The notes under the pieces are model-generated. The model searched no databases, had not been told where the DNA came from, and worked only from the letters and a program-made list of their open reading frames with translations. A DNA stretch of 45,659 nucleotides from an uncultured Desulfosoma sp. (GTDB lineage: Bacteria; Desulfobacterota; Syntrophobacteria; Syntrophobacterales; DSM-9756), in the NCBI GenBank assembly GCA_937960435.1, contig CALGPN010000044.1:1-45659 (forward strand), read 5' to 3'. Position numbers and translations under genes: made by a program. Shown in pieces: positions 6,899-37,532 of the stretch; the stretch's first letter is position 1; each line of letters begins with the position of its first letter.

Positions 6899-6925
6899 GG
6901 CGGGATCTCTGTGTGGAGCTCCGTT

Positions 6926-7010
6926 CGCCAATCCCTCCGCCAGCATGACCTGGATCAGGTTCAAGGGGTACCTTCTCAGCCCTCGCCTTTTTCGAGGACG
7001 CCCCCTGGCG
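6926..7010 (-). promoter_or_regulatory. TPP riboswitch aptamer (THI element)
   Basis: Read on the minus strand, the conserved aptamer landmarks appear in order: CAGGGGGCG, GGCTGAGA (6973-6981 region), ACCC, TTGAACCTGATCCAGGTC and ATGCTGGCG-AGGGA. The P1 partner strands sit at the two ends. The stem between GGCG and the CTGAGA block is the variable P3a-like arm. It is placed just after a good promoter and just before a terminator hairpin, so control is probably at the level of transcription. Confidence 0.95.
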
Positions 7011-7019
7011 ATCACGAAT

Positions 7020-32514: not shown

Positions 32515-33928
<1,414 letters not shown>

Positions 33929-33981
33929 TCTCCCGCAGCCGCCTTCGGACAAACCTTCTTGGTAAAAGCAAAACATCGGAT

Positions 33982-33999
33982 GGGGCCCGCCCGGGCCCC
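33982..33999. repeat. GC-rich inverted repeat after purA
   Basis: GGGGCCCG and CGGGCCCC form a perfect inverted repeat around CC. No T-run follows on either strand, so it is not a standard terminator. It lies 17 bp upstream of the -35 element of the fdhA promoter and could slow polymerase from purA or bind a protein. Confidence 0.5.
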
Positions 34000-34016
34000 G
34001 CTCCCATGCATTGGGG

Positions 34017-34046
34017 TTGACAGGATTTTCGCTTGGAAGTTATAAT
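34017..34046 (+). promoter_or_regulatory. Strong sigma70-type promoter upstream of fdhA
   Basis: Perfect TTGACA (34017-34022) and perfect TATAAT (34041-34046) are separated by 18 nt, the best promoter match in the window. It points to fdhA and would start transcription near 34053, leaving a leader of about 400 nt. Confidence 0.75.
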
Positions 34047-34052
34047 TTATAT

Positions 34053-34451
34053 GTTCAGGATAGTTTTCCCCAACGCGTGCGTATCTCATTCGCAATCCAG
34101 CCCGGGAGACTCCCCATGGGCGATGACGGGAGGGGAAGGGTTCAAAGGACGTTCCGTAGAGCGCCTTCCTTAATCCTTGCCGACGCCCCGTGGGGGTGGC
34201 GCTGTGCTCGAGTCCCATTCCATCGAACACGCTTCTGCTCTTTCCTTACTCCAAAGTTCCGTCTCGAGGGCGGGCGTCAAAGTCTTCCGTAATCATTCGG
34301 CTTAGGGCCAATCACACACAGAGAGGAGGTGAAACACCCAGAGACGTTTCGGCAGGGGTTCCGGGACATCGCCGGAAAGGCTGTGTCGGAGGGAGCCCCG
34401 ACGATTCAAGGAAATTCATTTTCATGGGTTATTTGGGACAGGAGGTCGGGA
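34053..34451 (+). other. Long untranslated leader of the fdh operon, function unknown
   Basis: Within the 523-bp gap between purA and fdhA, about 400 nt follow the strong promoter and contain no convincing gene. An AGGAGGT at 34323-34329 resembles a strong ribosome site but has no start codon at the right distance. Small stems are possible (for example GTCGG with CCGAC near 34385-34402, and CTCCC with GGGAG near 34110-34132). I cannot match it to a known riboswitch by eye. A molybdenum-cofactor-responsive RNA would make sense for this operon but is not shown. Confidence 0.4.
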
Positions 34452-37400
34452 ATGAAGCTGTCGCGTCGAGACTTTCTCAAGATTTCCGGGGCGGCGACGG
34501 CAGGTTTGGCTCTGAGCGGCTGCACGACCATGGGTTTTGAAAAAAAACCCGTGGAAGAAAAGGCTTGGCAACTCAGAACCAAAGACGCCAAAGAGACGCC
34601 TACCATATGCTGTTACTGCGGGGTCGGGTGCGGCATCATCTGCCATACCGACCGACAGACGGGAAAGGTCATCTACACGGAAGGAGACGCCGACCATCCC
34701 ATCAACCAGGGATCTTTGTGCGCCAAAGGCGCATCGTCTTACCAACTGGCCGTCAATGACAAGAGGGTCACCAAAGTTCTTTATCGCGCGCCGTATAGCG
34801 ACAAGTGGGAAGAAAAAACCTGGGATTGGGCGATCAAGGAAATCGCCGCCCGCGTCAAAGCGAGCCGAGACAAGAGTTTTACGGAAAAGAACGCCAAAGG
34901 TGAGGTCGTCAATCGTTGCAACGGGATCGCCTCGGTGGGCAGCGCCGCCTTGGACAACGAGGAATGCTGGATCTACCAGGCCATGCTGCGTGCCCTCGGA
35001 CTGGTATACATCGAACATCAGGCCCGTATTTGACACAGCGCCACGGTAGCGGCTCTGGCAGAGTCGTTCGGACGCGGCGCCATGACGAACCACTTTATCG
35101 ATGTCAAAAACAGCGATTGCATTCTCATCATGGGAGGCAACTCTGCGGAAACCCATCCCATCAGCTTCCGTTGGGTCATGAAGGCAAAGGAACGAGGGGC
35201 GATTCTCATCCACGTCGATCCCCGTTTCACCCGCACGTCCAGCAAAGCCGATTGTTATGCGGCTCTGCGTTCCGGAACGGATATCGCCTTTTTGGGGGGC
35301 ATGATCAACTATATCCTTTCCAACAACCTTTACTTCAAAGAATATGTGGTCCATTACTCCAACGCCAGCTTCATCGTCGGCGAGAAATACAGCTTTAAGG
35401 ACGGGTTATTTTCCGGATTCGACCCCGCGACGCGGAAATACGACAAAACCACCTGGGCTTATGAACTGGATGAAAACGGCGTCCCTAAAAAAGATTATAC
35501 CTTGAAACACCCTCGCTGCGTCTTCCAACTGCTCAAAAAACATTATTCGCGATACACGCTGGATAAGGTATCCAAAGTCACCGGAACTCCCAAAGAAGAT
35601 CTCAAAAAGGTCTATGAACTCTATAGTGCCACGGGAAAACCGGACAAAGCGGGAACGATCCTTTATGCCATGGGCTGGACACAGCACACGGTCGGAGTGC
35701 AGAACATCCGGGCCATGAGCATCATCCAGATTCTCTTGGGCAACATGGGCATGGCCGGAGGCGGCGTCAATGCGTTGCGCGGGGAATCCAACGTGCAGGG
35801 ATCCACGGACCACGGGCTGCTCTATCACATCTGGCCCGGCTACAATCCGGTCCCAACGGGCTCGGTGCCTACCCTTGCCGATTACTTAAAGAAGTACACG
35901 CCCGTTTCCAAAGATCCCATGAGCGCCAACTGGTGGCAGAACCGCCCCAAATACGTGGTGAGCTTTCTCAAAGCCATGTTCGGGGACGCCGCCGATGCCT
36001 CCAATGATTTCGGCTACGCGTGGATGCCCAAGCTGGACGACGGCAAAGCCTACAGTTGGTTGGATCTCTTTGACGCCATGTACCGGGGCGAGTTCAGCGG
36101 CTTTTTTGCTTGGGGACAAAACCCGGCGTGCAGCGGTGCCAATGCCGGTAAAACACGGGAGGCCCTTACCAAGCTCGATTGGATGGTCAACGTGAATCTT
36201 TTCCAAAACGAGACGGCCTCCTTCTGGCAAGCGCCCGGCTTAGACCCCAAAAAAATTAAAACGGAAGTGTTCTTCCTGCCGTGCGCCGCCTTCTTGGAAA
36301 AAGAAGGCTCCATCACCAATTCCGGCCGTTGGGCGCAGTGGCGTTACAAAGCCCAGGATCCCCCTGGGGAAGCCAAACCCGATGGGGACATCATCGTCGA
36401 GCTCTTCGAGGAAATCCGGAAACTCTATGCCAAGGGCGGTGTTTTCCCCGATCCCATCCTGAAGCTTAAATGGGACTACACGACGAACGGCCGCTTTGAT
36501 CCCCACAAAGTGGCCCGGGTCATCAACGGCGAGTACACCAAGGATGTGACGGTCCAAGATAAGACATACAAGAAAGGCCAACCGGTATCCTCTTTCGCCT
36601 TGTTGAAAGACGACGGCTCCACATCCAGCGGCTGCTGGATCTACTGTCAGAGCTACAACGAAGCCGGAAACAACATGGCAAAACGCGACAACAAGGACAC
36701 GAGCGGCATCGGCCTTTATTCCAATTGGGCTTGGGCCTGGCCGCTTAACCGACGGATCATTTACAACCGGGCCTCGGTGGATCTCATGGGACGGCCGTGG
36801 AACCCGCAACGCCCCGTGATCACCTTTGCCGGGGAAGTCAAAGAGGGCAAATATGTCTCTTCCAAATGGGTCGGCGACGTGCCTGACGGTGCCTGGTATC
36901 CCATGATGAACCCCGACGGGACGATGCGCACGGACAGCAAGTACCCCTTCATCATGAAACCCCACGGTTTCGCCGATATCTTCGGACCGGGTCTGGCAGA
37001 CGGGCCTTTTCCGGAACACTACGAAGCCATCGAGTGCCCCGTGGAGAAAAACTTGTTCAGTTCTCAACTCACCAATCCCGTGGCCGCCCTGTATGGAACG
37101 GAAAAAGACATCTACAAGACCTGCGATCCCCGATATCCTTTCGTGTGCACGACCTATCGGGTGACCGAACACTGGCAGACGGGCGTGCTCACGCGGTGGC
37201 TGCCATGGCTGTTGGAAACGGAACCGCAGATCTTTGTGGAGATGAGCGAGCAGCTGGCCAAGCTGCGAGGCATCAAGAACGGAGAAACCGTCATCGTGGA
37301 ATCGGCCCGAGGGTCTGTGGAAGCGGTGGCCATCGTGACCAAGCGTTTCCGGCCTTTCCTCGTCCACGGGCAGGAAATTCACCAGGTGGGGCTGCCATGG

Positions 37401-37532
37401 CATTACGGATGGGTCTGGCCGCCTCAGGGCGGTGAGAGCGCCAATCTGCTCACGCCGTCCACGGGCGATCCCAATACCCGCATTCCGGAAACCAAGGCTT
37501 TTATGGTCAACGTGCGAAAGAAGGGAGCCTAG
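34452..37532 (+). CDS. fdhA: Formate dehydrogenase alpha subunit, selenoprotein, Tat-exported
   Basis: A 1026-residue molybdopterin (or tungstopterin) enzyme that oxidises formate to CO2 or runs in reverse. The UGA at 35031-35033 is in frame and must be read as selenocysteine (residue 194): the sequence around it, HQARI-U-HSATVAALAESFGRGAMTNH, aligns with the Sec site of E. coli FdnG/FdoG, and the same frame continues for 832 codons. The N-terminus carries the Tat motif SRRDFLK and, at its end, LSGC, a lipobox. The N-terminal 4Fe-4S site is CYCGVGC...C plus GSLCAKG. The start at 34452 has GGAGG 7 nt before it. fdhB follows after 3 bp. Confidence 0.96.
35031..35033 (+). other. Selenocysteine UGA codon of fdhA
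   Basis: This TGA interrupts two long open stretches of one frame at the exact position of the active-site selenocysteine of the FDH family. The protein on both sides is conserved, which excludes a frameshift or true stop. Selenocysteine here binds Mo or W. Confidence 0.95.
35044..35066 (+). promoter_or_regulatory. Candidate bacterial SECIS hairpin
   Basis: Downstream of the UGA, CGGCTCT (35050-35056) pairs with AGAGTCG (35060-35066) around GGC, a 7-bp stem with one G-U pair. The start of the region, GGTAGC at 35045-35050, lies 11 nt after the UGA, the same distance as the GGTTGC of the E. coli fdhF SECIS. The loop does not reproduce the fdhF loop exactly, so the precise SelB-binding fold is uncertain. 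Confidence 0.6.

What the first reader, a model, noticed from the sequence alone, without database searches (positions are those of the whole stretch)
34053..34451. About 400-nt unexplained leader downstream of a consensus promoter at fdhA
The perfect TTGACA/TATAAT pair at 34017-34046 predicts an unusually long leader. It contains an orphan AGGAGGT with no usable start codon and several short stems. Such leaders often hold riboswitches or attenuators; FDH depends on Mo/W cofactor and selenium, so a cofactor- or metal-sensing RNA is a fair hypothesis. I could not match it to a known class.
Basis: inference. Interest (0 to 1): 0.6.

Follow-up and report, generated by a model that had tools for sequence, protein, structure and literature searches.

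The report
Conserved start-less ribosome site before fdhA
The long untranslated stretch before this formate dehydrogenase gene is real and shared by relatives, but what evolution has kept in it is not a switch that senses a cofactor: it is a strong ribosome-binding sequence with no start codon, probably a docking site that protects the messenger RNA, and the same element also sits in front of other energy-metabolism and transport genes.

Summary
A perfect TTGACA-18-TATAAT promoter (34017-34046) predicts a leader of about 400 nt before fdhA (ATG 34452). It contains AGAGGAGGTGA (34322-34332), 120-130 nt upstream, with no usable start codon. The cofactor-riboswitch idea is not supported: no Rfam match, folding no better than shuffles, no + strand terminator found, no conserved structured block seen. 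What relatives keep is the promoter and the start-less Shine-Dalgarno sequence: 12 of 13 close fdhA leaders have it, an island of about 11 nt, G(A/G)A(A/G)GGAGGTG, in otherwise poorly alignable sequence. The same element precedes aprB (24 of 30 leaders, at -79 to -96), OFA/MCT-type transporters (11 of 11 loci), an SSF symporter operon (5 of 5) and PstS (5 of 7 assessable). Start codons at working distance are rarer than chance (aprB 1 of 24; fdhA 3 of 21). Best explanation: a STAB-SD-like 30S docking site, as in Bacillus cry3A, that blocks 5'-to-3' decay (RNase J and RNase E/G are both encoded). Conserved and mostly non-initiating is well supported by sequence; mRNA protection is inferred from anatomy. 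The searches made showed no report of it in this phylum.

The parts
34017..34046 (+). sigma-70-type promoter TTGACA-18-TATAAT
   Evidence: 12/12 consensus; 0 of 100 shuffles reach it; 8 of 12 close leaders, the window included, have TTGACA, an 18-nt spacer and a -10 hexamer with at least 4 of 6 matches upstream of their orphan SD
34053..34320 (+). 5' part of the leader, hardly conserved; predicted to be dispensable or trimmed
   Evidence: little aligns in 3-way alignments; no Rfam match
34322..34332 (+). orphan Shine-Dalgarno AGAGGAGGTGA, proposed 30S docking site (STAB-SD-like)
   Evidence: 12 of 13 close fdhA leaders have at least 8 of 11 matches to AAAGGAGGTGA; no start codon 4-11 nt downstream
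34333..34439 (+). spacer between orphan SD and fdhA SD, not conserved in sequence and without a shared fold
34440..34446 (+). fdhA's own Shine-Dalgarno AGGAGGT
   Evidence: sequence
34452..37532 (+). fdhA, molybdopterin oxidoreductase (formate dehydrogenase large subunit) with TAT signal and an in-frame TGA, read as selenocysteine, at codon 194 (35031-35033)
   Evidence: the closest orthologue in 6 of the other 7 family genomes also holds one in-frame TGA, the seventh has no match

Best explanation
The leader carries a non-initiating Shine-Dalgarno sequence, consensus G(A/G)A(A/G)GGAGGTG (here GAGAGGAGGTG), complementary to the 3' end of 16S rRNA. A 30S subunit docks there without starting translation. 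By analogy with cry3A STAB-SD, the bound subunit blocks a 5'-to-3' exonuclease (RNase J is encoded here). The variable 5' part of the leader may be trimmed away, while the RNA from the orphan SD onward, with fdhA's own SD and the genes behind it, stays long-lived. Shown by sequence: the element, its conservation in fdhA and other leaders, its general lack of start codons, and the presence of RNase J and RNase E/G genes. Inferred: 30S binding, exonuclease blocking, trimming and mRNA stabilisation.
For: Present in 12 of 13 close fdhA leaders (L055 dropped because it holds 55 nt upstream). In a word count with no motif given, AAAGGAGG/AAGGAGGT/AGGAGGTG are among the most shared 8-mers (11 of 12 leaders). 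At least 9 of 11 matches in 10 of 12 leaders, against a mean of 0.66 for 1000 letter permutations; the one permutation that ties is the same motif shifted. Same element in 24 of 30 aprB leaders at -79 to -96: 9 of its 11 columns are invariant, flanking columns 0.29-0.71 (rows below 9 of 11 left out); permutation mean 2.87, two near-copies of the motif reach it. OFA/MCT-type transporter 11 of 11 loci, six with tandem copies 24-28 nt apart (10 of 11 reach 10 of 11 matches against a permutation mean of 0.33). PstS 5 of 7, SSF 5 of 5. Start codons 4-11 nt downstream: aprB 1 of 24 against 44% by composition (binomial 2e-5), fdhA 3 of 21 against 40% (0.012). RNase J family TIGR00649, 614 bits, over cut-off (the model is labelled MG423, its RNase J identity is recalled); RNase E/G 378 bits. 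cry3A geometry is similar: start at -558, STAB-SD near -129 (PMC4113751 section 3.2, passage read); here about -400 and -130.
Against: No RNA data. The orphan SD is not predicted to be more single-stranded than the rest of the leader (fdhA mean unpaired 0.36, mean percentile 0.31, 11 leaders; aprB 0.41 and 0.44, 25 leaders). Two same-genus relatives have an ATG 9 nt downstream opening 23- and 4-codon ORFs, and 3 of 11 OFA/MCT-type leaders have ATG or TTG at 4-11 nt. RNase E/G is also encoded, and a bound ribosome does not protect against RNase E in E. coli lacZ (PMC3997798, passage read). The exact 10-mer AAAGGAGGTG is not over-represented in this genome (26 sites against 25 for the reversed control; G006 48 against 31). 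Per-locus shuffles give p<0.05 in only 7 of 12 close and 6 of 63 distant leaders. L057 lacks it. The SSF set is small: 33 of 1000 permutations also reach 5 of 5 at 9 of 11. The leaders are related, so the binomial values overstate the evidence. A 16S 3'-end word matched in 1 of 5 genomes, at a stretch that does not read as a 16S end, so complementarity rests on established knowledge of the anti-SD.
Confidence: 0.6

Rival explanations
1. A short leader ORF is translated from the orphan SD, using a common or near-cognate start codon, and couples to or regulates fdhA.
For: Two same-genus relatives have ATG at 9 nt spacing (4 and 23 codons); CTG lies at 4-11 nt in 7 of 24 aprB leaders; 3 of 11 OFA/MCT-type leaders have ATG or TTG there.
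Against: ATG/GTG/TTG at working distance is rarer than chance in fdhA and aprB leaders. No codon is shared: the commonest trinucleotide there is GGA, in 15 of 45, and 22 of 45 leaders have none of ATG/GTG/TTG/CTG/ATT/ATC/ATA. The window's in-frame GTG 34329 overlaps the SD itself, and its frame relative to fdhA is not kept among relatives (distances).
Confidence: 0.12
2. A standby or reservoir site: a 30S subunit docks at the orphan SD and slides or transfers to the true SD, raising translation rather than stability.
For: The true start lies 60-221 nt downstream in the 21 fdhA leaders examined and at a narrow distance for aprB (79-96).
Against: The distance runs from 60 to 221 nt for fdhA and about 360-490 for the OFA/MCT-type transporters, wide for direct transfer; the RNA between is not conserved.
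Confidence: 0.15
3. A riboswitch or attenuator sensing Mo/W cofactor, metal or selenium.
For: Long leader; the gene product needs Mo/W cofactor and Sec.
Against: No Rfam match, ordinary folding, no conserved structured domain seen, no + strand terminator found; the same element precedes unrelated genes.
Confidence: 0.04
4. The motif is the binding site of an RNA-binding protein (for example a GGA-binding CsrA-type protein), not of the ribosome.
For: The GGA core fits such proteins (recalled).
Against: Conservation runs through the whole anti-SD complement G(A/G)A(A/G)GGAGGTG and I see no shared hairpin around it.
Confidence: 0.07

Closest known systems
STAB-SD of Bacillus thuringiensis cry3A (Agaisse and Lereclus 1996, not read; described in PMC4113751 and PMC3997798, passages read)
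   Same: Strong SD in the 5' UTR not used for initiation, near -130, far downstream of the promoter; host encodes RNase J
   Different: Gram-negative Thermodesulfobacteriota (Syntrophobacterales) host that also encodes RNase E/G; found before a set of energy-metabolism and transport genes, sometimes in tandem, and intercistronic after a GC-rich hairpin in sat-aprB; stabilisation untested
5' stabilisers of ermC, gsiB, SP82 and ompA mRNAs (PMC3997798 and PMC7509114, passages read); hbs (reference title seen only)
   Same: 30S or ribosome binding near the 5' end said to protect mRNA, in some cases without a start codon
   Different: As far as the passages tell, the gene's own SD or a stalled ribosome is used; here the SD is a separate, start-less copy
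Moco riboswitch and other cofactor riboswitches
   Same: Sit in leaders of molybdenum-cofactor and molybdenum-enzyme genes (recalled)
   Different: No match at or near threshold

Membership tests
STAB-SD 5' mRNA stabiliser | SD-like sequence complementary to the 16S 3' end within the 5' UTR, well upstream of the gene | tested here: met
   34322-34332, 120-130 nt upstream of fdhA, 10 of 11 to AAAGGAGGTGA; the 16S tail of this genome was not seen
STAB-SD 5' mRNA stabiliser | Does not direct translation initiation | tested here: met
   by sequence only: no start codon at 4-11 nt in the window; likewise in 18 of 21 fdhA and 23 of 24 aprB leaders
STAB-SD 5' mRNA stabiliser | Gene has its own separate SD | tested here: met
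   AGGAGGT 34440-34446
STAB-SD 5' mRNA stabiliser | Host has a 5'-to-3' exonuclease of the RNase J type | tested here: met
   TIGR00649 614 bits, over cut-off; presence of the gene, not its activity
STAB-SD 5' mRNA stabiliser | Stable transcript's 5' end lies just upstream of the SD | not testable with these tools
   needs 5'-end mapping
STAB-SD 5' mRNA stabiliser | 30S binding and longer half-life depend on the SD | not testable with these tools
   needs toeprinting and half-life assays
Cofactor riboswitch (Moco or other Rfam class) | Match to a known aptamer model | tested here: not met
   no family at gathering score in the leader; the one match at E<=10 is sX5, 14.1 bits, E=3, - strand
Cofactor riboswitch (Moco or other Rfam class) | Conserved, unusually stable secondary structure | tested here: not met
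   z = 0.15 for the whole leader; orphan-SD-to-fdhA part z -1.47 in the window, -1.13 to 2.57 in nine relatives, no shared fold by inspection
Transcription attenuator | Intrinsic terminator in the leader on the + strand | tested here: not met
   three terminator-like sites in 33000-36000, all on the - strand, 3.7 expected by chance
Leader-peptide regulation | Conserved short ORF after the SD | tested here: not met

The most novel reading that the evidence does not exclude
A clade-wide set of sulfate-reducer and syntroph mRNAs (fdhA, aprBA, OFA/MCT-type transporters, SSF symporter, PstS and other genes) carries dedicated non-initiating 30S docking sites, singly or in tandem and under selection against start codons. 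They would set 5' ends and lifetimes of main energy-metabolism messages and could couple their stability to free 30S supply in slow-growing anaerobes that have both RNase J and RNase E/G.
Probability: 0.4. Interest if true: 0.75.

Novelty: new variant of a known kind. Interest (0 to 1): 0.6.

Why it matters
STAB-SD is described for Bacillus thuringiensis and other Gram-positive bacteria (PMC4113751, passage read). A conserved, recurring, start-less SD in front of sulfate-reduction and formate genes of Gram-negative anaerobes would extend 30S-based mRNA protection to another branch of bacteria, give a testable reason for their long leaders, and warn that a strong SD there does not imply a missed gene.

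Tried and rejected
Riboswitch/attenuator: Rfam scans at gathering and E-value thresholds, folding and alignments gave nothing. The leader as a repeated or mobile piece: in its own genome only short matches besides itself (E 0.6 or worse), and in 96 relatives only short matches (E 0.002 or worse). Leader ORF: see rivals. N-terminal extension of FdhA from GTG 34329: the GTG overlaps the SD and the frame is not kept among relatives. Accessibility as support: it did not support the reading. Base rate in other leaders: a crude gene finder on the 80 fdhA-neighbourhood loci gave 371 leaders with 4 AAGGAGGTG sites (300 letter permutations: mean 0.41, highest 4), three of them in fdhA leaders; it missed many fdhA leaders, perhaps because of the Sec stop, so it is only a rough control. 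Genome-wide orphan list: made by a simple rule; many non-RBS sites look to lie inside coding sequence and were not counted as leaders, and start codons of the genes behind were assigned by rule.

Rows dropped or chosen: four family loci (L042-L045) duplicate named contigs and four (L046-L049) are paralogues; leaders under 230 nt were left out of the distant set. The fdhA start-codon set of 21 is 12 close leaders plus nine distant ones that I picked by eye for carrying the motif; distant loci with 9 of 11 but left out include L062, L077, L095 and L107. L203 (PstS) holds no upstream DNA and was taken out: 5 of 7, not 5 of 8. aprB: 30 loci were fetched of 35 matches.

Literature: 'STAB-SD' 31 papers, 20 listed, listing only except the passages named; 'orphan Shine-Dalgarno' 0; other searches listed no paper whose title or abstract start reports such elements in this phylum.

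Full report
What is there. The window belongs to a genome close to Desulfacinum (order Syntrophobacterales, phylum Thermodesulfobacteriota): its family members G004, G006 and G007 share contig lengths with D. infernum, D. hydrothermale and a Desulfacinum MAG (identification by equal contig length is my inference). fdhA (34452-37532) encodes a molybdopterin oxidoreductase with a TAT signal and an in-frame TGA, read as selenocysteine, at codon 194. It follows purA (ends 33928) with a 523-nt gap. A perfect TTGACA-18-TATAAT promoter lies at 34017-34046, so the predicted leader is about 400 nt. The orphan SD AGAGGAGGTGA lies at 34322-34332 and fdhA's own AGGAGGT at 34440.

It is not a known RNA. 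cmscan at gathering thresholds finds only a TPP riboswitch elsewhere in the window; with relaxed thresholds one chance-level hit on the opposite strand appears. The whole leader folds like its shuffles (z 0.15), and the part from the orphan SD to fdhA shows no shared fold by inspection in the window and nine relatives. No + strand terminator was found.

What is conserved. Loci encoding FdhA relatives were fetched (91 loci, L039-L129, the window's own included); the DNA before the start codon could be taken from 87 of them. In the 3-way alignment of Desulfacinum the runs of eight or more identical columns that I see are the -35, the -10 and the DNA just after it, the orphan SD, and the fdhA SD; in the genus they are the -35 and the fdhA SD. 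A word count with no motif given puts AAAGGAGG, AAGGAGGT and AGGAGGTG among the top words (11 of 12 leaders, one mismatch allowed); TTGACAGT reaches 9 of 12, as do two unrelated words, GGGAAGCG and TCCATGGA. Of 13 distinct close leaders (72% or more identity in the best FdhA segment, with enough upstream DNA), 12 have at least 8 of 11 matches to AAAGGAGGTGA, at -97 to -213; the exception is L057. L055 was dropped for having 55 nt of upstream DNA, and the truncated L101 was counted with the distant set. With the 12 loci holding longer upstream DNA, 10 reach 9 of 11; 1000 letter permutations average 0.66 and only a shifted version of the same motif ties. Among 63 more distant leaders 11 reach it (permutation mean 2.9; one permutation, the same shifted motif, exceeds it), but only 6 of 63 beat their own shuffles at p<0.05. 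The element fades with distance: none of 13 loci named as Desulfovibrio, Solidesulfovibrio, Pseudodesulfovibrio, Humidesulfovibrio or Desulfovibrionaceae reaches 9 of 11 (loci L075, L079, L081-L083, L086, L087, L093, L094, L096, L097, L108, L110). In Desulfofervidaceae locus L061 the best promoter's -10 ends 23 nt before the orphan SD, so there the SD would sit near the 5' end of the primary transcript.

It recurs before other genes. A scan of this genome for RGGAGGTGA (82 sites against 37 for the reversed control), followed up at the AGGAGGTGA sites (48 sites read, 25 with a usable start and an ORF of 30 codons or more), led to orphan copies before an OFA/MCT-type MFS transporter, an SSF symporter operon and a PstS-like gene (names). 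In the eight family genomes the element (9 of 11 or better within 800 nt) is present in 11 of 11 OFA/MCT-type loci, six with tandem copies 24-28 nt apart; in 5 of 5 SSF loci (three genomes gave no match at the threshold used); and in 5 of 7 PstS loci with upstream DNA. Permutation controls: OFA/MCT mean 2.34 (4 of 1000 reach 11; the three listed are shifted or near copies of the motif), SSF mean 1.06 (33 of 1000 reach 5), PstS mean 0.75 (10 of 1000 reach 5), so the SSF set is weak on its own. Start codons 4-11 nt after the best site: 3 of 11, 0 of 5 and 0 of 5. Scanning AAAGGAGGTG in two genomes, 8 of 25 distinct sites (G000) and 14 of 48 (G006) look like ordinary RBSs. Among the rest are start-less copies 82-139 nt upstream of genes with their own SD: aprB in both genomes; in G000 an AMP-binding CoA ligase and a FadL-like outer-membrane protein; in G006 a TAXI solute-binding protein, a sigma-70-family factor, an amino-acid-type binding protein and a CoA-transferase, among others. 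aprB was then tested across the order: 24 of 30 leaders have the element at -79 to -96 (30 of 35 matches fetched); the five loci of family f2 lack it, and L297 has a weaker copy below the cut. f2 aprB genes instead show TTGAC(A/T)-type promoter words close upstream, by eye. In G000 the gene before aprB is sat (ATP sulfurylase), so there the element is intercistronic, and the 60 nt before it fold better than their mononucleotide shuffles (mean z -2.48 over 24 leaders, against +0.75 for 11 fdhA leaders).

Initiation is not its job. Counting ATG/GTG/TTG 4-11 nt after AAAGGAGG: 1 of 24 aprB and 3 of 21 fdhA leaders, against 44% and 40% expected from shuffles of the following DNA (binomial 2e-5 and 0.012). 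The leaders are related, and nine of the 21 fdhA leaders were picked by eye, so these values are optimistic. No other codon takes over. Contrary cases: ATG at 9 nt in L040 and L041 (23 and 4 codons), TTG in L074 and L293, ATG or TTG in three OFA/MCT-type leaders.

Mechanism. The conserved word G(A/G)A(A/G)GGAGGTG matches the canonical anti-SD tail of 16S rRNA (established knowledge; a 16S 3'-end word was found in one of five genomes, at a stretch that does not read as a 16S end). The nearest experimental precedent is cry3A STAB-SD: transcript start at -558, major 5' end at -129, an SD not used for initiation, and a 30S subunit that stops RNase J1 (PMC4113751 section 3.2, passage read). Reviews say that a strong SD without an initiation codon can stabilise mRNA in Bacilli, and name cases in E. 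coli too (PMC3997798 section 16; PMC7509114 section 11; passages read). This genome has RNase J and RNase E/G. I therefore propose that the fdhA leader is a 5' stabiliser. For sat-aprB and pst, where the element is intercistronic, the same device would favour the downstream cistron. Binding, 5' ends and half-lives are untested, and the predicted accessibility of the site is average or below.

Novelty. It works like STAB-SD and meets the sequence-level defining features; the functional ones could not be tested. In the paper searches made (listings, plus the passages named) I saw no report of such elements in this phylum. I call it a new variant of a known kind.

Noticed in passing
window 6914-7015 (-): TPP riboswitch, 67.7 bits.
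   Followed up: no
window 35028-35086 (+): Weak SECIS_3 match (26.5 bits, below the gathering score of 63) at the in-frame TGA of fdhA, as expected for a bacterial SECIS.
   Followed up: no
L271-L300, region before aprB: A GC-rich hairpin with differing sequences often sits directly before the orphan SD of aprB (mean z -2.48 over 24 leaders); may be a processing or partial termination point between sat and aprB.
   Followed up: partly
L278-L282 (family f2): The five f2 aprB leaders lack the orphan SD and, by eye, have TTGAC(A/T)-type promoter words close upstream: a natural contrast.
   Followed up: partly
L186, L187, L188, L190, L191, L192: Tandem orphan SDs 24-28 nt apart about 360-420 nt upstream of OFA/MCT-type transporters; G006 has a further tandem pair at L251:700/724. 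The following leader of about 380 nt was not examined beyond the Rfam scan of some loci.
   Followed up: partly
L050, L051, L063 at and just downstream of the -10: TATGGTGAAA..AATAACGA is identical in three Desulfacinum leaders and may be a regulator site overlapping the start of transcription.
   Followed up: no
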